Virus record (IMG/VR): IMGVR_UViG_3300005732_000009
Span: 1 to 41,552 of that record
Source of the DNA: a virus
Strand: one strand, 5' to 3'
DNA length: 41,552 nucleotides
A program made the position numbers and the translations under genes. Below, piece after piece: positions 2,916 to 41,354 of the stretch. Position 1 is the stretch's first letter. Each line of letters begins with the position of its first letter. The notes beneath the pieces are model-generated. The model searched no databases and was not told the DNA's origin. It saw only the letters and a program-made list of their open reading frames with translations.

Positions 2916-3143
2916 GGGCCCTCCTGCTGCCCCGCATACTATCGCGAAAGCTGATAGTTCTCCACTCAGCCATCAATAATGCTGATACCTCGCAAATGAA
3001 CTTGGCGAGACCGCTGCCCGCTCGTACAGTGGTCTCGCTTCGGGAGTCACGCCTCCGAAGTCCCAGGTCGAGCGCGGAGCACACGACACCAGGGCGCCGG
3101 AACCCATCCGCTGTGGGTGGGCATTTTGTAAGGGAGGGTACCG
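2916..3143. other. Non-coding stretch with inverted repeats between endolysin and accessory island
   Basis: No gene is supported on either strand. It contains an inverted repeat at about 3005-3038 (arms GCGAGACC and GGTCTCGC, 18-base spacer) and next to it a smaller one at 3037-3060 (CTTCGG and CCGAAG). Neither is followed by a clear T-run. They may be weak terminators or protein-binding sites. This stretch should carry the promoter of the plus-strand gene at 3144, but I see no convincing -35/-10 pair. Confidence 0.45.
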
Positions 3144-3365
3144 ATGGACTGTCGGACCAACCGTGGCGTGGCGGGTGTCTGCCTCGAAACCGAATTGGGA
3201 ATCAGGCGGGCGTACCGCAGTGGTGGGAACGTGGGCTTGCTCGAATGGGTCCGCAACGAGACTGAGGGCTGTGGCCAGTCCGAGCTGTTGGCATTACTGC
3301 CAGCCGTTCGGCGTCTGGAGCGGTGGCTCAGCCTACAGGTCGCCGTGTCGGGCAGCGACGACTAG
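3144..3365 (+). CDS. Small hypothetical protein, paralogue of the facing gene at 3397-3558
   Basis: This 73-aa product starts at an ATG preceded by GGGAGGG at good spacing, which is strong support for a real gene on the strand opposite to the flanking late genes. Residues of about 12-40 (VCLETELGIRRAYRSGG, then LLEWVRNE) match the product of the convergent minus-strand gene at 3397-3558 (VCLETELEMRRALRRGG, then LIAWIAAQ). The rest is unrelated. The pattern looks like a short DNA- or protein-binding helix pair. Function unknown; it belongs to the accessory island. Confidence 0.65.
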   Translation: MDCRTNRGVAGVCLETELGIRRAYRSGGNVGLLEWVRNETEGCGQSELLALLPAVRRLERWLSLQVAVSGSDD

Positions 3366-3396
3366 CCACATCCCGGGAGACCGGGCGCCCACATCA

Positions 3397-3558
3397 TCAA
3401 GCCGCCAGCGCCTCGGCTAAGTCGGCCCGCGCCTCTTCTTCGACCTGCGCCGCAATCCAGGCGATGAGTGCCGGCCACCCGCCGCGACGGAGTGCCCGGC
3501 GCATTTCGAGTTCGGTTTCGAGGCAGACCTGTTTGACAGGCTTGCTTTTGTCGGTCAT
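3397..3558 (-). CDS. Small hypothetical protein (53 aa), paralogue of 3144-3365
   Basis: The ATG at 3558 is preceded by GGAGA seven bases upstream. The product is MTDKSKPVKQVCLETELEMR followed by a mostly helical acidic stretch (VEEEARADLAEALAA). Its central 29 residues align without gaps to the convergent plus-strand gene 3144-3365, and an 18-base identity (3177-3194 against the complement of 3511-3528) supports a shared origin. Two homologous mini-genes facing each other within 40 bases is unusual. Function unknown. Confidence 0.65.
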   Translation of the reverse strand: MTDKSKPVKQVCLETELEMRRALRRGGWPALIAWIAAQVEEEARADLAEALAA

Positions 3559-3594
3559 CTTTCAGTCTCCATTGTCTGCCTGATTGTGGAATTG

Positions 3595-3627
3595 AAACCG
3601 CGTCGCCCCACCTAGGTGACGCGGTTT
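3595..3627. terminator. Hairpin between two accessory genes
   Basis: A perfect 10-bp stem (AAACCGCGTC with GACGCGGTTT, 3595-3604 and 3618-3627) with a 13-base loop lies nine bases after the stop of the minus-strand gene 3636-3911. On the plus strand it is followed by TTTCCTCGTTTCT, so it may end transcription in either direction. It separates the small-gene pair from the longer accessory genes. Confidence 0.65.
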
Positions 3628-3635
3628 CCTCGTTT

Positions 3636-3911
3636 CTAAGGCTCGATATTGGTCAAGCCGGCTAAGAGTTGGAGCTGCCGAAGGCTGGACTTACGAACCT
3701 CGATAGCGAGACTCAGCAGGATCTCGGCGGTCGGTTCTCCATATGTCGCTGCTGCGGCCCTCAATTCTCGCACCGCCTCAAGAGTGGCGCTGTTCAGGTG
3801 AGCCGCTGCCAGGAATTTAGCAGCAATCTCGGGCGACTCTGAGCGGGCGTGCAGGAAGCCAAGCGCAGCAGCCCTCTTGATTCGGTGCGCTCGTAACTGC
3901 TCAATCGTCAT
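3636..3911 (-). CDS. Hypothetical helical protein of accessory island
   Basis: I chose the ATG at 3911, seven bases after GGTGGG; a GTG at 3923 in the same frame is possible. The 91-aa product (MTIEQLRAHRIKRAAALGFL) is almost entirely alpha-helical, basic at the N-terminus, with no membrane segment. It overlaps the end of the 349-aa gene upstream by 11 bases, so the two are probably translated together and act together. A hairpin follows its stop. I do not recognise the family. Confidence 0.65.
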   Translation of the reverse strand: MTIEQLRAHRIKRAAALGFLHARSESPEIAAKFLAAAHLNSATLEAVRELRAAAATYGEPTAEILLSLAIEVRKSSLRQLQLLAGLTNIEP

Positions 3912-4950
3912 CTTCTGACCCACCCATCAACCCCAGCAGGATAGGCTCGATGCTTCTCTTGGCTCGCCGCTTCTTCAGCCGTTTGCGCTTGGACTTGCGG
4001 CTGTCGATGTCAGCCTGAATCTTCGTAACAACCGCCGAGTGAACGTTGTTCTTGAGCAGAGCCATTCTCAGGTCGGTCTGCGAAGCGATCTCTTCGGTCA
4101 TCTCACGTCGCGCCTCAACAGATTGAAGCCGAGCGTAGACTGCCGCCACCTTGCGCTGCTCTTGCCGCGCCTGAAGCTCGGTGTGGTCGCGACGGGCGAT
4201 GATTGCGTGGATCTGCACTCGCTGCTTGAGAGTAGCCTCCCCTGACTCCAGCATGCTGATAAGATCCTTGTGGATATCGAACACGCTCACAGACGGAGTA
4301 GCCCCTACGCCGACAGACTCAAGAGCAGCCTGGGCCTCTGCACCAAGACGGGCGGAATCCAGCGCCTGCTCTGGGGTCGTGCTCAACCCCATCTTCCCGC
4401 GAATGAACGAAGCCAGCCCGCCGCCACCTGCCATCCCAACAACTCTCAGACACTGCTGAGCCCACCGCCGCTCGCGAGCGTGCAAGATTCCGTGAGCGTG
4501 CGCCTGATTGATGATCATCGCCATTGTATGAAGCGCTTCAACTCGCATGACTGACGCCGCCGGGCCGCGCGAATCTGGGCGGCGAAGGCGGCGCTGTCCA
4601 AGCGATGTCGGCGAAAGTTTTATTTCCCTTTCGTTCCAGTCGGTTAAGCCTATGTCTCGGCACGTTTTGCCCATCTCGGCCAAAGTTTTAATCAGCCGCT
4701 GAAGGATGCGGTCAACAATTGCGACCACCTTATGGAGTGGGTGACGGTACATACCGAGCGCGGGGCCAGCGGCTGCGTTGCCGACAAACACCACGCCGCC
4801 GGCTACAAACGCGTCAAGTACACAGAACCCGGTATCCAGGCCCTTGATGTAAGCGTTAGCACGCTGTGGCACCAACTGAGTGTCGTTCATTTGGACGACC
4901 TGAAGGTCGGGCGCATCTCCCGATTTGCGGCTCAGACAATGTTCTGACAT
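3901..4950 (-). CDS. Hypothetical 349-aa accessory protein with a possible membrane segment
   Basis: Three ATGs stand in tandem at 4956, 4953 and 4950; GGAGA fits the last best. Residues of about 38-68 form a Gly/Ala/Val-rich hydrophobic stretch (FCVLDAFVAGGVVFVGNAAA) that could be a membrane helix or hairpin. The middle and C-terminal halves are helical and charged, ending in a strongly basic run (RKSKRKRLKKRRAKRS) and then an acidic tip (GGSEDDD). By eye this gene is less GC-rich than the tail genes, as expected for recent transfer. Position behind an XRE regulator in a prophage-type island suggests an exclusion or defence role, but no motif shows it. Confidence 0.6.
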   Translation of the reverse strand: MSEHCLSRKSGDAPDLQVVQMNDTQLVPQRANAYIKGLDTGFCVLDAFVAGGVVFVGNAAAGPALGMYRHPLHKVVAIVDRILQRLIKTLAEMGKTCRDIGLTDWNEREIKLSPTSLGQRRLRRPDSRGPAASVMRVEALHTMAMIINQAHAHGILHARERRWAQQCLRVVGMAGGGGLASFIRGKMGLSTTPEQALDSARLGAEAQAALESVGVGATPSVSVFDIHKDLISMLESGEATLKQRVQIHAIIARRDHTELQARQEQRKVAAVYARLQSVEARREMTEEIASQTDLRMALLKNNVHSAVVTKIQADIDSRKSKRKRLKKRRAKRSIEPILLGLMGGSEDDD

Positions 4951-5015
4951 CATCATTCTCCAGTGTGAGGCCTCCGCTCGCGTCCGTGGAAAGAAGAGAG
5001 CAGGAAGCCAAGTTG

Positions 5016-5036
5016 AACCGCCTTCAGGCGGTTTTT
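5016..5036 (+). terminator. Rho-independent terminator
   Basis: A stem AACCGCC / GGCGGTT with a TTCA loop is followed on the plus strand by TTTTTCTGTTT. It lies between the minus-strand genes starting at 4950 and ending at 5043. The T-run points rightward, so it would stop plus-strand readthrough; on the minus strand the hairpin is followed only by TTCAACTT, so termination there would be weaker. Confidence 0.75.
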
Positions 5037-5042
5037 CTGTTT

Positions 5043-5300
5043 CTAGGCCGCGATCTGCTCGCCGCCGGCCATCTCTTCAGCTTGCTTCATCAGTTCTGAC
5101 GGCTTCATCCCGAGTGCTTCGGCAATGCCGCAGAGCGCCGACGCGCTCCATTGCCCTTGCCCGCGCTCCAGTTTGGACAGATATCCAGGCTGGACTGGAA
5201 AGTCCGCCATGCGCAGGAGGGCGAACATGGTCAGGCCCATGGACTTGCGCCCGTTCCGCACACATTTGCCTATTGCACGATTGATTGTACTGCTCTGCAT
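5043..5300 (-). CDS. XRE-family HTH regulator of accessory island
   Basis: This 85-aa protein begins at an ATG with GGAGG six bases upstream. It is essentially one helix-turn-helix domain of the Cro/C1 (HTH_3) type: a helix around GKCVRNGRKSMGLT, then PGYLSKLERGQGQW (recognition helix with the typical LSKLERG), then SASALCGIAEALGMKPSELM. It diverges from a second HTH gene at 5482 across a 181-base regulatory region and heads the minus-strand accessory genes. It probably controls the island and not the main lysis-lysogeny switch, which lies at 32 kb. Confidence 0.8.
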   Translation of the reverse strand: MQSSTINRAIGKCVRNGRKSMGLTMFALLRMADFPVQPGYLSKLERGQGQWSASALCGIAEALGMKPSELMKQAEEMAGGEQIAA

Positions 5301-5481
5301 CTGACGCCTCCTTTTGCGTGGCCTATACTTTTCTAGGGGCCTGTGAATGTTCCGTCAAGCACATTTTCTGCGACCTGTCTGGAATCTAACGCTGTCATGA
5401 ATTTTATGACAAGCGCTCCTGCGATCAGACTCTCCACGATTTTCGGGCTGCTAGAGCCCGCCGCTCTGGTAGTGTCCAGCT
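5301..5481. promoter_or_regulatory. Divergent regulatory region between two HTH genes, with 19-bp dyad
   Basis: A sigma70-like promoter for the minus-strand gene is visible: TTGACG (complement of 5353-5358), 17 bases, TAGAAA (complement of 5330-5335). A 19-bp near-perfect dyad TGTCATGAATTTTATGACA lies at 5393-5411 (8 of 9 pairs) and is a good operator candidate for one of the two HTH proteins. The plus-strand gene at 5482 has no recognisable ribosome site, so its message may be leaderless or nearly so. Confidence 0.6.
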
Positions 5482-6144
5482 ATGAGCACCAAGGCGACAC
5501 CGAAGACAGTCGGCGGGCTGCCTGAGCAGATCAGGTCATCCTTGGCCGACCTGCGAGCTGAGCGCGGGCTAACGACTCGCGACGTCGCCGAGCGGACTGG
5601 ACTAAACAGATCGGCTGTCAGCGCTTTAGAGCGCGGCGTTCGCCAGGTGACCGTTCACGACATTGAGGCACTGTCAAAGTGCTACGGAGTTGAGCCCGTC
5701 AGCCTATTCGGGGCGGCTCCTGCCCTTGGGGATCTCGTGGTCGCCCGGCTGCTCCGTCGGATGCGGACGCTGTTTGAGAGGGTGCTGAAGGCGGCCAAGA
5801 CCGCGGCTCATTACGATGGCGTCGCGAAGCTGCGGCGAACGATTGAGTTGATTGAACAAGGCGACGTCGAAGCGGGGCGCCGGCAATTCAGGCTCTGCTC
5901 ACCATGGGTGCTGGCGAATCTTCGCGATGAGAGCGGCGAGGTTGTCTACGCACGCGAGGCTGAGCGCCCGGAAGAGGGTGATAGTGACGATGACTTGAGC
6001 ACCCTGCCAGCCGTTGCTGCGACTCAGGGCCTGGACTATCTCGCTGGAGCGATGGCGACGCTCGCACGAAGCGGCCCAGAGCGCACACGCGTCCTCTGGA
6101 TGCAAGACGTTGCGGCGCAACGGGCGCTCAAGAGTCAGGGCTAA
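5482..6144 (+). CDS. XRE-family HTH regulator with long C-terminal domain
   Basis: This 220-aa protein has an N-terminal Cro/C1-type HTH at about residues 18-72: SSLADLRAERGLTTRDVAER, then TGLNRSAVSALERGVRQ and DIEALSKCYGVEPVSLF. The remaining 145 residues are helical, with an acidic linker (ERPEEGDSDDD), and match no domain I know; there is no visible LexA/CI-type Ser-Lys autoprotease. It could be a repressor with a sensor or oligomerisation domain. The start lacks a Shine-Dalgarno. It is followed 52 bases later by a lipoprotein gene that it may control. Confidence 0.8.
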   Translation: MSTKATPKTVGGLPEQIRSSLADLRAERGLTTRDVAERTGLNRSAVSALERGVRQVTVHDIEALSKCYGVEPVSLFGAAPALGDLVVARLLRRMRTLFERVLKAAKTAAHYDGVAKLRRTIELIEQGDVEAGRRQFRLCSPWVLANLRDESGEVVYAREAERPEEGDSDDDLSTLPAVAATQGLDYLAGAMATLARSGPERTRVLWMQDVAAQRALKSQG

Positions 6145-6196
6145 GCTCGCCTCGAAATAATCCCACCCTCACCGCGTCTACTACCCGGAGGCCACA

Positions 6197-6625
6197 ATGC
6201 GAATCATCCTACTCACCATCCTTGCCCTCGCTGGCTGTGACGACGCTGGGAGCACGCCGTGCGACCCAGAGACCGAGGTTTGCTGCGACGCGCCTGAGCC
6301 GGAAGATATCGTTTGCCCGGAGGGCTCAGAGAAGATTGTTACAGAGGACGAGACGTCGCTCACGGTGACATGCCACAACGGCGTGCAGCCGGTTGGAGTC
6401 GGGCTTCAGGTCATCGGCGCAAACACCTACCACTTGAACTACATCGAGGCCGAGAATCGATACGAGCACGAGACGTTCTGCCGTGGGGATCTTGTTGTGC
6501 TGAGATTTCAGCAGTCGGAATCCCGTAGCAGCACTAGGTGCCACAACATCTGCCTTCTCGAAGAGGGGGAAACGTTCTACAACGCATCGTGTAATGAGGC
6601 GCCCCCCTGCCCACCTCAGCCGTAA
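6197..6625 (+). CDS. Cys-rich surface lipoprotein (candidate moron / lysogenic conversion gene)
   Basis: This 142-aa product begins at an ATG after GGAGG. Residues 1-14 are a lipoprotein signal (MRIILLTILALAGC) with lipobox LAGC; the +2/+3 residues are Asp-Asp. The mature chain is small and rich in cysteine (CDPETEVCCD, IVCPEG, TCHNG, FCRG, RCHNIC, SCNEAPPC), suggesting a disulfide-bonded extracytoplasmic domain. It is on the strand opposite the tail genes and its end overlaps the tail-hub gene by ten bases tail-to-tail. Phage lipoproteins in such positions often block receptors against superinfecting phage; that role is inferred. Confidence 0.75.
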   Translation: MRIILLTILALAGCDDAGSTPCDPETEVCCDAPEPEDIVCPEGSEKIVTEDETSLTVTCHNGVQPVGVGLQVIGANTYHLNYIEAENRYEHETFCRGDLVVLRFQQSESRSSTRCHNICLLEEGETFYNASCNEAPPCPPQP

Positions 6626-9600
6626 ATCTTCGCAGCGTCTCCAGCGCCCAGCGTCGCTGCGTCGTCAGCCGGGTGCTGGTAGCCCTTCTGAGCCTCAGTT
6701 GTTGCCGCTGCGGTGTAGTCGTCGCCACGCAGCGTGTCGCCGACCACAAGCGCTGGTGATGCCGCAGCGCTCAGGGTGATCTGGTTGCCGGTGATGTCGG
6801 TGACGGTGAGACCAGCAGTGCTGTTCGCGTAATTGCCTCGAGGGCAGGCCCGCACGCTGTCGCCCACATTCCAGAAACTGATGTCGGTCTGCGCTGAGTC
6901 GTCCACGGGACTGACGGCCTCGGTGTAGCCATTGGCCGCCACCACGTAGATGCTCGATGAGACGACCGACGTGACCTTGAGGCTCGGCGCCACGCCGCTC
7001 AGGGTCCTGTCGTGCCATGTGAGCTTTACTTGAGCGTCCTGCTTGTACGGACTGGGCTCGATGCTAATGACGCGCATCGCCTGATTCACGACGCCCATGG
7101 TGCCGTCGTAGTTGGCGACGTTCGTGGCGCTCACGAGCACCGTTGACCCGGCGTTGAGCAGCAGTGCATCTGCCCAACTGATGTTGCCAGTCACCTGCCG
7201 ACGGCTCTTGCCCAGGTTGCTGAATCGCTGAGCCGTGAAGGGCAGCACCGCACGCACCTGGTCCGTTGGCGACTGCGCGTCCACAGTCACGCCACGCAGG
7301 TCGATCTCTTCGATGCTGCTCGCGCCGTTCTCGCCGATGCTGTCCTGGTCGCGGACCGAGATCGAAAGCCGGTGCTCATCCTCGCTCGGGCTGTAGTTCA
7401 CGAGCACGGTGATGCGGTTGACTAGGCGCTCATCCTCGCTCGGAGTCGGGCGCCTTTCGGCAAGCCACAGCCCGTTTGTGATGGTCTTGATGCTATCCCC
7501 CGCGTACTCGGAGCCCAGTGACACCAGAGTGAGCTTGCGCCGGTAGATGCCGCCTGTGCTGGCCGTCTGCTCGACACGCAGCACCAGCGCCCCGCCGATG
7601 GCCTTCAGAATCGGTTCAATGACCTGCTCAATGGGCGATGAGTCGATGTCGTTCAGGCTGAAGCTCAGGTCGGTCGCTAGCCCGTCTGGGTACGGGAAGC
7701 GGTAAAACGAGTCCACGTCGATCTCGTCGGTCGTCAGGTTGGCGCCACGAGGGAACACGTCAGACGAGGAATTGAAGCCGAGCCCGTCACCGGACATGAG
7801 TATCTGAAGCAAGACAGTCGCCGGGTCGGCATGTGACCACGACACGTCTTGCTCGATGGTGCACCGGACCTGTCCAGGCCAGTCGCCGAACGACAGCGAT
7901 TGAGCACGCTCGTTTTCAGGCACCTCAAGTAGATGGCCCGGCGACCCTGGCGTGATGGTTGCGGCAGTCTGAACGGTGCTGATGCCCATCGCCCAGCGGC
8001 GCTCGGTTCCGTCGTGCTCAGTCCAGCGCAGACGAATGCGTGAGTCGGCTGCAATCACATCGTCAGCCACGTGTATGTAGCGCTCGCCCTTCTGGTAGTA
8101 AGCGTCGGCAACGCCGCGGATTGCGACGGCGTAGCTCTGGGGGCCTGTCAGACTGTCTAGATCCTCTTCGCCGCTCGATTGGATAGTGCGATTGATCCCT
8201 GAGGCCGCACCGCCTCCCTCAAGGTCACTAATCCGCGCTGTGTTCTCGGGGGCAAAAAGGCCAATGCCGTAGTAGAGCCGGTTGAAATTGCTCTCCCAAG
8301 CGGTGAGTCTGACGGTCTGCGTGGTGGCGTCGGTGTTCGGTCTGAAGACGAGGCTGGGACCATTGGGGTGATTGGGGTCGATGCTAACATCAGAAAAGCG
8401 GCCGTTGACGCCAACAACGTCGCCCGGCGACATGTCAGCGTTCATCTTAGCAAGCGCGTCATTGGGCCACCCAACCACCTCGGCAGTGCCTGGAGTGGTG
8501 AGTGGGGTCACATTGATCTGATCCCATGCTGGAGCGTTCTGAATAATCGCGTTGGCCGGGACCGCTACACCTGTTGCCGGGTCAAGGGTCATTGAGTCCG
8601 CCGGCGCCGCGCCCCTGGCAGTGCCGTTATACCCAGTTACCGCAAAGGGCGTGTTGGGTATCTCGTCAATAGTCACGGTGCCGCCTCGGGAGCCAGTGCC
8701 ACCCGTGGCGATGTCGAACGCGTCCTTATGAGCCCGCCACCGGCAGGACACCGCAGCGCCAGCCGCTGACGCAAACGTCACGTTTTCCTTCCACGCCTGG
8801 CCTGCTGCGTAGCCGACCTGGAGCATGAAGCGGTCGGCGCCCAGCCCGTCGAACGTGTGGTAGCCCTGCTGAAGCCCGGTGCGCAGCGTGGCGCCGCCAA
8901 TCTCCTGCTTGAGCGCATTGGTGTGCGGCATGATGTTGATGGCGATTTGCAGCCCGTCGTCACTGCCCTCTGGCGGGGCGATGATGCGGCCGCTGACGTA
9001 CTCGACCCATTCGTCGGGGTGAGTGCCGTTGTGCCGGGCGGCGGTCACGAGCACGCGAGCCTTTCGGCCCTGCCACGCGACGCATTGAGAGTAGACCCTC
9101 GGGGCGAGTCCAGTGATCGGATCAGCAAGGTGCCGGCGCTGCTCTGAGCCGAACCAGCCGCGGGAACTGATGACGGGCACGGTGAAGCGGAACGGCGCAA
9201 CGACGGACCGAGCGCTGTACTGGATGGCCTCCTGCCCAATCCACAGCACGCCACTGGCGGGCCAGTTGCTGATGTCCTCGTTGACGGTGACGAAGCTAGC
9301 GCTGTTCTGCTCAACCGTCTCGGCAAGAGTCGCGGTGTACTGAGCTGCTGAGTCGCGAGCGAGCAGTTGCAGCGCTTCATTGCTGCCGCCGCGCCCGGTG
9401 ATAGCGAGCGTGACTGCGACTTGGCCGGCCTCAGCCGTTGACTTGAGTGGATCAAGTGTCTGGGCCGCTGGCGACACGCCGATGATACCGCGCTTCGCCA
9501 CGTGGCTCCACGCGGTGCCGTAGTTGGGTAGCGTCGGCGGTTGGTCACTGGAGAAAAAGCAATCTTCGAGGCCGTCGATTTCGAGGATGAAGATTTGCCG

Positions 9601-9636
9601 CTGCTGGCGTCGGGCCAGTTCTGTGAAGACGCTCAT
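6616..9636 (-). CDS. Tail tip / central hub protein
   Basis: At 1006 aa this is the largest gene of the window and the last of the tail operon. It begins MSVFTELARRQQRQIFILEI. The C-terminal half contains stretches typical of tail hub proteins (SPIEQVIEPILKAIGGALVL; NAGSTVLVSATNVANYDGT; MRVISIEPSPYKQD). The N-terminal 600 residues are beta-rich and may carry the receptor-contacting part. In siphoviruses the gene after the distal-tail genes encodes the hub that plugs the tube and opens the cell envelope. No lysozyme or peptidase motif is visible. Assignment rests mainly on position and size. Confidence 0.7.
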   Translation of the reverse strand: MSVFTELARRQQRQIFILEIDGLEDCFFSSDQPPTLPNYGTAWSHVAKRGIIGVSPAAQTLDPLKSTAEAGQVAVTLAITGRGGSNEALQLLARDSAAQYTATLAETVEQNSASFVTVNEDISNWPASGVLWIGQEAIQYSARSVVAPFRFTVPVISSRGWFGSEQRRHLADPITGLAPRVYSQCVAWQGRKARVLVTAARHNGTHPDEWVEYVSGRIIAPPEGSDDGLQIAINIMPHTNALKQEIGGATLRTGLQQGYHTFDGLGADRFMLQVGYAAGQAWKENVTFASAAGAAVSCRWRAHKDAFDIATGGTGSRGGTVTIDEIPNTPFAVTGYNGTARGAAPADSMTLDPATGVAVPANAIIQNAPAWDQINVTPLTTPGTAEVVGWPNDALAKMNADMSPGDVVGVNGRFSDVSIDPNHPNGPSLVFRPNTDATTQTVRLTAWESNFNRLYYGIGLFAPENTARISDLEGGGAASGINRTIQSSGEEDLDSLTGPQSYAVAIRGVADAYYQKGERYIHVADDVIAADSRIRLRWTEHDGTERRWAMGISTVQTAATITPGSPGHLLEVPENERAQSLSFGDWPGQVRCTIEQDVSWSHADPATVLLQILMSGDGLGFNSSSDVFPRGANLTTDEIDVDSFYRFPYPDGLATDLSFSLNDIDSSPIEQVIEPILKAIGGALVLRVEQTASTGGIYRRKLTLVSLGSEYAGDSIKTITNGLWLAERRPTPSEDERLVNRITVLVNYSPSEDEHRLSISVRDQDSIGENGASSIEEIDLRGVTVDAQSPTDQVRAVLPFTAQRFSNLGKSRRQVTGNISWADALLLNAGSTVLVSATNVANYDGTMGVVNQAMRVISIEPSPYKQDAQVKLTWHDRTLSGVAPSLKVTSVVSSSIYVVAANGYTEAVSPVDDSAQTDISFWNVGDSVRACPRGNYANSTAGLTVTDITGNQITLSAAASPALVVGDTLRGDDYTAAATTEAQKGYQHPADDAATLGAGDAAKIYG

Positions 9637-31856: not shown

Positions 31857-32267
31857 TTAGGCTGTGCGCGTAATGCGGTCGATCTTGTTCTGTATGACGA
31901 TCCCTACTGCCTGTAGCAGCGTCTCGACATCATCGAGGTGAAGCGCATCAAGAAGCAGCCGCTCATCGCTATTGAGATTCGGGATCAAGTGCTCCTCCAG
32001 ATCGTCGCTTCCTGGAAGCAGCACCCGAGCTGGCACGCCAAAGTACGCAGCTATATCCTCAAGAGCGTTGAGGTTTATCCGCCGCTTGCCGCGTTCTGCC
32101 GCACTCAGTTGTGACGTTGCGAGGTTTGTGCCCGCGGCGACGTCCTGCAGCGTCTTACCGCGGGCCGTGCGGAGCCGGGCTATGCGCTCACCCGTGTCCT
32201 TGGAAAGTTTACTGACGGGCGTCTTCTCTGCCACGGATCTAGAGGCCTTTGTTGGGGTGGTAGCCAA
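31857..32267 (-). CDS. CI-like phage repressor (XRE family)
   Basis: This 136-aa protein (from a TTG at 32267; a GTG 12 codons in is an alternative) has a Cro/C1 HTH at about residues 27-80: GERIARLRTARGKTLQDVAA, then LATSQLSAAERGKRRINLNA and LEDIAAYFGVPARVLLPG. The C-terminal 50 residues are helical and acidic (SDERLLLDALHLDDVETLLQ), fit for dimerisation; no autoprotease residues are visible, so induction would not be through RecA-driven self-cleavage. Divergence from a Cro-like gene and the adjacent leftward promoter make it the likely lysogeny repressor. Confidence 0.8.
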   Translation of the reverse strand: MATTPTKASRSVAEKTPVSKLSKDTGERIARLRTARGKTLQDVAAGTNLATSQLSAAERGKRRINLNALEDIAAYFGVPARVLLPGSDDLEEHLIPNLNSDERLLLDALHLDDVETLLQAVGIVIQNKIDRITRTA

Positions 32268-32325
32268 TTAAGAGTTCCCATTTTGCGAAAAGTGCTTGTG
32301 CTCATAGTGGGTCGCGGCTAGCTTG
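32268..32325. promoter_or_regulatory. Repressor/Cro divergent control region
   Basis: This 58-base gap separates the two divergent regulator genes. It contains TCCCATT (32277-32283), the complement of a motif at the leftward replication promoter, and a possible -10 CATAGT for the plus strand at 32303-32308. Neither gene has a Shine-Dalgarno, so both messages may be leaderless or nearly so. The operators could not be delimited further. Confidence 0.5.
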
Positions 32326-32592
32326 ATGGTCATGAAGATTCACGAACAGCTTGCGACCTGGTTGAAGGCGAAAGGCCTAAGCCAGACGGACTTCTGCGAG
32401 ATTGCCGGTATTAGTAACAGTCACATATCCATGATCCTAAAGGGCAAACGCCTCGCTGGTAGGAGAGTGGCGCACAAGATCGACTCCGCCACAGGTGGCG
32501 CAATCTCGGCCGCAGAGCTTCTTTGTGCGCAGGTTGGACGCGATGATCTTCGCAAAATGCAAAACGCTCCAGCGCAAGTGGAGGCGCCATGA
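32326..32592 (+). CDS. Cro-like regulator (XRE family)
   Basis: This product of about 88 aa (start at ATG 32326 or 32332) is a single HTH: LATWLKAKGLSQTDFCEIAG, then ISNSHISMILKGKRLAGRRV with typical recognition helix, and AHKIDSATGGAISAAELLC. Such one-domain proteins opposite a CI-like gene are usually Cro-type antirepressors of lysogeny that open the early genes. It is the first gene of the rightward early operon; its stop overlaps the next start. Confidence 0.82.
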   Translation: MVMKIHEQLATWLKAKGLSQTDFCEIAGISNSHISMILKGKRLAGRRVAHKIDSATGGAISAAELLCAQVGRDDLRKMQNAPAQVEAP

Positions 32593-41151: not shown

Positions 41152-41196
41152 GGAGCGGGAAACGGGATTCGAACCCGCGACTTTCAGCTTGGGAAG
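41152..41196 (-). other. attP core: 3' half of a tRNA-Gly(CCC) gene
   Basis: Read on the minus strand this 45-base stretch is the anticodon loop to the 3' end of a tRNA: loop TTCCCAA (anticodon CCC), stem GCTGA, variable loop, T-arm with TTCGAAT, acceptor TTCCCGC and discriminator T, then CCG (no encoded CCA). The expected 5' anticodon arm is absent (bases after 41196 do not pair), so it is a partial gene. Next to an integrase this is the classical attP identity segment that restores the host tRNA after integration. Confidence 0.85.
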
Positions 41197-41354
41197 TTTT
41201 GCGAAGGGGGCAGGGTGTTGACGCAAGGCCTACTGCCGCAACGATTGGTGTCACGTGGCAGCAGTCTTCAGCACCCTGCCAGCCGCTGGGTGCTGTGACC
41301 TCCGCTGTGACCCTTTCGACGCACTGGGCGAACCATTAAGCGACGCTTAAGAGT

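What the first reader, a model, noticed from the sequence alone, without database searches (positions are those of the whole stretch)
2916..6625. Accessory island with its own pair of XRE regulators, a lipoprotein and unknown genes
Between tail hub and endolysin lies a stretch with two divergent HTH genes around a 19-bp dyad, an HTH-headed minus-strand pair (349 aa with a membrane-like segment plus 91 aa), a Cys-rich lipoprotein on the plus strand, and terminators. It breaks the late operon and has opposite strands, as in moron cargo expressed by the prophage. The 349-aa and 91-aa overlapping genes are the best candidates here for an undescribed two-gene exclusion or defence system.
Basis: inference. 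Interest (0 to 1): 0.75.

Follow-up and report, generated by a model that had tools for sequence, protein, structure and literature searches.

The report
Lipoprotein island beside phage tail hub
A phage that probably infects myxobacteria carries, beside its tail-tip gene and facing it, a regulator and a lipoprotein gene that most likely keep rival phages out of an already infected cell; relatives keep such a gene at this spot although its sequence keeps changing.

Summary
Between the tail hub (6616-9636, minus) and the amidase endolysin (2208-2915, minus) lies a regulator-controlled island: divergent XRE genes (5043-5300 minus, 5482-6144 plus) around a 19-bp dyad, an overlapping 351/91-aa minus-strand pair, a Cys-rich lipoprotein (6197-6625, plus), hairpins, and an unreported inverted pair of paralogous small genes. 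The 351/91-aa pair is orphan in every collection searched and nothing ties it to defence. The recurring part is the lipoprotein. In distant relatives of the hub from Myxococcota genomes (about 23-28% identical), a lipoprotein gene convergent with the hub sits at its 3' end: all five complete loci of the window's myxobacterial clade and three of six in a second clade, mostly within 10 bp tail to tail. The lipoproteins are mostly unrelated in sequence; in three of five an XRE gene directly precedes them. Coliphage Rtp has the same layout (J-like hub, then antisense rtp44/rtp45), and Rtp45 is a proven superinfection-exclusion lipoprotein. Best reading: a lysogenic-conversion module whose lipoprotein masks the receptor or blocks entry used by the phage's own tail. 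This is inferred; no function was tested. A new variant of a known kind.

The parts
6197..6625 (+). 142-aa Cys-rich, acidic predicted lipoprotein (MRIILLTILALAGC|DD...), convergent with and overlapping the last 10 bp of the tail-hub gene; proposed superinfection-exclusion lipoprotein
   Evidence: positional counterparts in relatives
5482..6144 (+). XRE220, XRE-type regulator directly upstream of the lipoprotein (52-bp gap), possibly leaderless, probably co-transcribed with it
   Evidence: Pfam HTH_31 E 7.4e-12; 5' sequence without ribosome site
5393..5411 (.). 19-bp dyad TGTCATGAATTTTATGACA, candidate operator overlapping the -35 box of the minus-strand promoter-like site
5383..5412 (-). sigma70-like promoter match TTGTCA-18-TAGATT reading towards XRE85
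   Evidence: consensus match only
5043..5300 (-). XRE85, small XRE/Cro-like protein divergent from XRE220
   Evidence: HTH_3 E 2.4e-4; PHROG repressors; ribosome site
5015..5034 (+). hairpin with T-tract on the plus strand, between XRE85 and the 351-aa gene
3901..4956 (-). 351-aa orphan protein; hydrophobic segment about residues 44-62, predicted long C-terminal helix, basic C-terminal region
   Evidence: no meaningful match in any library or collection; low-confidence model, mean pLDDT 50.7
3636..3911 (-). 91-aa orphan protein, start overlaps the 351-aa gene's 3' end by 11 bp
3594..3628 (+). 14-bp stem hairpin, terminator-like, with T-rich tail on the plus strand
3397..3558 (-). p53, small protein, paralog of p73, inverted orientation
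3144..3365 (+). p73, small protein, paralog of p53
6616..9636 (-). tail hub/tail-tip gene (neighbour, not cargo); anchor used to find relatives
   Evidence: distant relatives match PHROG tail baseplate families and one lies downstream of a tape-measure gene; the window copy has no family match of its own

Best explanation
The island is a lysogenic-conversion (moron) module whose conserved working part is the plus-strand pair XRE220 -> lipoprotein, convergent with the tail-hub gene. In the lysogen, or early in infection, the XRE regulator and the lipoprotein are made from their own promoter. The lipoprotein is exported, lipidated and placed at the outer membrane, where it blocks the receptor or entry step used by the phage's own tail tip, so that the cell is not infected again and progeny are not lost on it. 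Late transcription of the hub reads antisense through the lipoprotein and XRE220, which would switch the module off during virion production. XRE85 and the dyad probably control the 351/91-aa minus-strand genes, whose role is not known. Shown: gene anatomy, the lipoprotein signal, and the recurrence of hub plus antisense lipoprotein in relatives. Inferred: timing of expression, membrane location, receptor blocking and the antisense switch.
For: Hub homologues were found by profile search in Myxococcota genomes. An antisense lipoprotein gene lies at the hub 3' end in the window (overlap 10 bp), L099 (4 bp), L100 (adjacent), L109 (4 bp, two lipoproteins in a row), L123 (adjacent, nested between plus-strand tail genes), L143 (2 bp), L127 (371 bp) and L098 (856 bp); in L147 it abuts the next tail gene, and in L129 antisense lipoproteins lie upstream of the hub and after the next tail gene. 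By an automatic rule 7 of 19 hub loci have one within 1.5 kb against about 1 expected (P about 5e-5), and 5 of 19 within 15 bp (P about 2e-11 from the background rate). The pattern was noticed on the first three loci; of the 15 complete loci read later, three more abut the hub within 5 bp. An XRE/HTH gene precedes the lipoprotein on the same strand in the window, L109 and L100, and more distantly in L099. In coliphages, RBPs and their exclusion proteins lie directly downstream of gpJ (PMC9586334, PMC8594841); Rtp shows J-like rtp43 followed on the opposite strand by rtp44 and lipoprotein rtp45, and Rtp45 blocks RBP binding to LptDE (PMC12685063).
Against: No exclusion phenotype or expression data exist. 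The lipoprotein (142 aa) is about twice the size of T5 Llp, Cor and Rtp45 and has no sequence similarity to any phage record. About half of the hub relatives lack it at that spot, including a whole clade (L124, L125, L128, L144) and two viral contigs (L102, L103). The hub identity rests on distant relatives; the window protein has no family match and its model is poor. Lipoproteins are common in these bacteria, so other roles remain open. The P values use a crude lipobox rule and treat related loci as independent.
Confidence: 0.5

Rival explanations
1. The lipoprotein is a lysogenic-conversion factor that changes the host surface or fitness (predation, adhesion, stress), unrelated to exclusion; the site beside the hub is simply a permissive place at the end of the tail operon.
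For: Sequence-unrelated lipoproteins at one locus fit a cargo hotspot. Two lipoproteins in a row in L109. The ends of tail operons are common moron sites (own knowledge).
Against: A general hotspot should hold varied cargo; here the gene next to the hub is repeatedly a lipoprotein, and in one locus it sits inside the tail operon (L123).
Confidence: 0.27
2. The XRE85-351-91 minus-strand genes are an undescribed two-gene defence or exclusion system.
For: Overlap of the two genes, a hydrophobic segment, own divergent regulator with candidate operator.
Against: No relatives anywhere searched, absent from all related loci, no PADLOC match; a hairpin separates XRE85 from the 351-aa gene.
Confidence: 0.1
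3. The lipoprotein is an outer-membrane spanin or other lysis protein.
For: Lies near the lysis genes; o-spanins are lipoproteins (own knowledge).
Against: It is on the strand opposite to the endolysin and the rest of the late operon, is longer and more Cys-rich than usual o-spanins (own knowledge), and its counterparts lie by the hub.
Confidence: 0.05
4. The 351/91-aa and p53/p73 genes are late structural or lysis-accessory genes of the phage, and only XRE220-lipoprotein is inserted cargo.
For: The 351/91-aa genes and p53 lie on the late strand just upstream of the endolysin.
Against: Own promoter-like site and regulator upstream; orphan; no match to PHROG structural or lysis families.
Confidence: 0.15

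Closest known systems
Rtp45 and the rtp43-rtp44-rtp45 locus of coliphage Rtp (gpJ-downstream exclusion locus of Drexlerviridae)
   Same: J-like tail-tip gene followed directly by an antisense unit that encodes a lipoprotein; Rtp45 is a superinfection-exclusion lipoprotein (PMC12685063).
   Different: The Rtp antisense unit holds rtp44, which is taken as the RBP; here the phage has an integrase, the unit starts with an XRE regulator, the lipoprotein is about twice as long, and there is no sequence similarity.
Llp of phage T5
   Same: Lipoprotein gene next to the receptor-binding tail gene oad and on the opposite strand; blocks receptor FhuA (PMC9586334).
   Different: Divergent rather than convergent; lytic phage; 77 aa; no sequence similarity found.
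Cor of temperate phages phi80 and N15
   Same: Exclusion protein encoded a few genes after the J homologue.
   Different: Same strand as the tail genes, smaller, no XRE partner, no sequence similarity found.
Ltp of Streptococcus thermophilus phage TP-J34
   Same: Lipoprotein of a temperate phage that mediates exclusion (PMC3952083).
   Different: Gram-positive host; genomic position and sequence were not compared here.

Membership tests
gpJ-downstream superinfection-exclusion lipoproteins (Llp/Cor/Rtp45 kind) | Encodes a lipoprotein (signal peptide with lipobox) | tested here: met
   MRIILLTILALAGC in the window and lipobox genes in relatives
gpJ-downstream superinfection-exclusion lipoproteins (Llp/Cor/Rtp45 kind) | Lies directly beside or downstream of the tail-tip/receptor-binding gene | tested here: met
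   Tail to tail with the 1006-aa hub and in relatives; that the hub is a tail-tip protein rests on distant relatives only
gpJ-downstream superinfection-exclusion lipoproteins (Llp/Cor/Rtp45 kind) | Transcribed separately from the late operon | tested here: met
   Opposite strand, downstream of its own XRE gene; actual transcripts not testable here
gpJ-downstream superinfection-exclusion lipoproteins (Llp/Cor/Rtp45 kind) | Sequence similarity to a known exclusion lipoprotein | tested here: not met
   tblastn against 50,697 phage records, which include T5, phi80, N15 and Rtp, gives no match at E 1; PMC9586334 notes that similarity between Llp and Cor is itself low
gpJ-downstream superinfection-exclusion lipoproteins (Llp/Cor/Rtp45 kind) | Prevents infection by phages that use the same receptor | not testable with these tools
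   needs a phage and a host
Moron / lysogenic-conversion island | Own regulation and orientation independent of flanking phage operons | tested here: met
   Divergent XRE pair, opposite strands, hairpins
Moron / lysogenic-conversion island | Expressed from the prophage | not testable with these tools
   no RNA data
Known anti-phage defence systems (PADLOC) | 351-aa or 91-aa protein matches a defence family | tested here: not met
   no match at E up to 1; only the generic HTH domains of the XRE proteins match control-protein and similar models
Spanin (o-spanin) | Encoded with the lysis genes on the late strand | tested here: not met
   Opposite strand and beside the hub in the window and relatives

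The most novel reading that the evidence does not exclude
Temperate phages of Myxococcota carry a general, position-defined exclusion slot: a convergent lipoprotein gene, often behind an XRE regulator, tail to tail with the hub. Its occupants belong to several unrelated, undescribed lipoprotein families exchanged to match the hub's receptor, so new exclusion proteins can be found by position alone.
Probability: 0.4. Interest if true: 0.65.

Novelty: new variant of a known kind. Interest (0 to 1): 0.5.

Why it matters
Exclusion lipoproteins next to the tail-tip gene are worked out for coliphages. Finding the same layout, with sequence-unrelated lipoproteins and a linked regulator, in distant temperate phages of Myxococcota would show that the locus is a general solution reached with different proteins. 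It would also give a simple rule for finding exclusion proteins, and pointers to phage receptors, in a phylum whose phages are little studied.

Tried and rejected
Homologues of the 351-aa protein: pattern scans of viral and genome contigs, tblastn on phages, six-frame search of 379 Myxococcota genomes and PDB search gave only chance-level matches; the best one (L089) is a protein that looks like a glycine-cleavage T protein, matched over 95 residues. Structure models of the 351-aa protein (mean pLDDT 50.7) and of the hub (37.5) were too poor for a fold search, so none was run. Single-sequence scans with hub and terminase found nothing; profile searches with hub alignments did. The lipoprotein has no relative among phages or 361 Myxococcota genomes. 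Relatives of p53 in phages and plasmids: none. The weak SulA match of p53 (E 0.003) is dismissed as far below its cut-off. Locus L146 was a chance match. Rfam found no RNA family in the window and ARAGORN no tRNA.
Full report
What is in the window. The window is a 41,552-base virus record of a divergent temperate tailed phage: terminase, portal, protease and major head protein, DnaB-like helicase, SSB and a tyrosine integrase. The late genes run on the minus strand to the hub (6616-9636) and, after the island, to an amidase endolysin (2208-2915; Amidase_2). The host is probably a myxobacterium: the most identical SSB match (68%) is in a Myxococcota genome, and hub relatives were found in Myxococcota genomes.

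The island. From right to left: a 142-aa lipoprotein gene on the plus strand whose last 10 bp overlap the hub's 3' end; XRE220 upstream of it on the same strand, without a ribosome site and perhaps leaderless; a 181-bp divergent gap with the 19-bp dyad; XRE85 on the minus strand; a hairpin; the 351-aa and 91-aa minus-strand genes overlapping by 11 bp; a strong hairpin; and two small paralogous genes, p53 (minus) and p73 (plus), in inverted orientation. Codon-position bias supports the named frames over the competing plus-strand ORFs. GC is slightly lower than in the flanks (0.59-0.60 in 4001-6000 against 0.62-0.65). The dyad is real but only moderately improbable (2.75% of resampled gaps); it covers the -35-like box of the single minus-strand promoter-like match in the gap. 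The phage has another divergent HTH pair by its replication genes (31857-32267 and 32323-32592), and XRE220 is related to that XRE136 (E 3e-10), so the island pair is an additional regulator set and not evidently the main lysogeny switch.

The 351/91-aa pair. Every search failed to find a relative. The single-sequence model shows only a long C-terminal helix with confidence. The pair was not found in any of the related loci. It stays an orphan pair of unknown role, and calling it a defence system has no support beyond layout.

The lipoprotein is the recurring feature. Searching Myxococcota genomes with the hub gave relatives about 23-28% identical, and profiles reached a second, more distant set. 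Reading the DNA around them showed that the gene facing the hub's 3' end is a lipoprotein in L099, L100, L109, L123 and L143 (1 to 4 bp away), L127 (371 bp) and L098 (856 bp, behind a small minus-strand gene). In L147 a lipoprotein abuts the following tail gene, and in L129 antisense lipoproteins lie before the hub and after the next tail gene. No such gene was seen at the hub in L124, L125, L128, L144, L142, L145, L102 and L103; L126 has a gap of N nearby. An automatic lipobox rule, which misses L100, finds 7 of 19 loci with an antisense lipoprotein within 1.5 kb against a background that predicts about one (P about 5e-5), and 5 of 19 within 15 bp (P about 2e-11). These numbers are rough because the rule is crude and the loci share ancestry. 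The pattern was noticed on the first three loci, but of the 15 complete loci read afterwards L109, L123 and L143 again abut the hub within 5 bp. On the hub tree the feature is present in all five complete loci of the window's myxobacterial clade and three of six loci of a second clade, and absent from a third.

What the lipoproteins have in common. Mature parts are 89-170 aa, acidic (net charge -9 to -21) and mostly Cys-rich. Only L109a-L143 and L123-L143 show likely similarity (Z about 5.5); the window's is unlike all others and has no relative in phages or 361 genomes. An XRE/HTH gene precedes the lipoprotein on the same strand in the window, L109 and L100 (weak domain score in L100), and lies further upstream in L099.

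Mechanism. In coliphages the receptor-binding protein and its cognate exclusion protein are encoded directly downstream of gpJ (PMC9586334, PMC8594841). I checked records: in Rtp the J homologue rtp43 is followed by rtp44 and the lipoprotein rtp45 on the opposite strand; in T5 the lipoprotein gene is next to oad on the opposite strand; in phi80 and N15 cor lies three genes after the J homologue on the same strand. Llp blocks FhuA from the periplasmic side (PMC9586334) and Rtp45 reshapes LptD so that the RBP cannot bind (PMC12685063). The window has the Rtp-like layout. I therefore infer that the lipoprotein masks the receptor or entry step of the phage's own tail, is made from an XRE-controlled promoter independent of the late operon, and is silenced by antisense late transcription. 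The layout is shown here; the function is not. It resembles this family by position and lipoprotein nature, but fails the sequence-similarity test and is larger, so I do not file it as a homologue.

Verdict. Observation confirmed; interpretation partly supported; the likely actor is the lipoprotein and not the 351/91-aa pair.

Noticed in passing
window 3144-3365 (+) and 3397-3558 (-): Two small paralogous genes (41% identical over 49 aa, shared VCLETELxxRRAxRxGG motif) in inverted, convergent orientation inside the island; no relatives of p53 in phages or plasmids.
   Followed up: partly
window 31857-32592: A second divergent HTH pair (XRE136 minus, 89-aa HTH plus) beside the replication genes, probably the main lysogeny switch; XRE136 is a paralog of XRE220 in the island.
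   Followed up: partly
window 41160-41200: A tRNA 3'-half-like sequence (GGATTCGAACCC...CTTGGGAAG) just after the integrase, likely the attachment site; ARAGORN calls no complete tRNA.
   Followed up: no
L109, L099, L100 (one genome, G215): One bacterial genome holds three different hub homologues on three contigs, each with a different antisense lipoprotein; an apt polylysogen for exclusion tests.
   Followed up: partly
L147 3067-4014: A second, collagen-like (GPQG repeat) lipoprotein gene near the tail end of a related prophage.
   Followed up: no
L123 5388-5777: Antisense lipoprotein gene nested inside the tail operon, between the hub and further plus-strand tail genes, directly adjacent to the hub stop.
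   Followed up: partly
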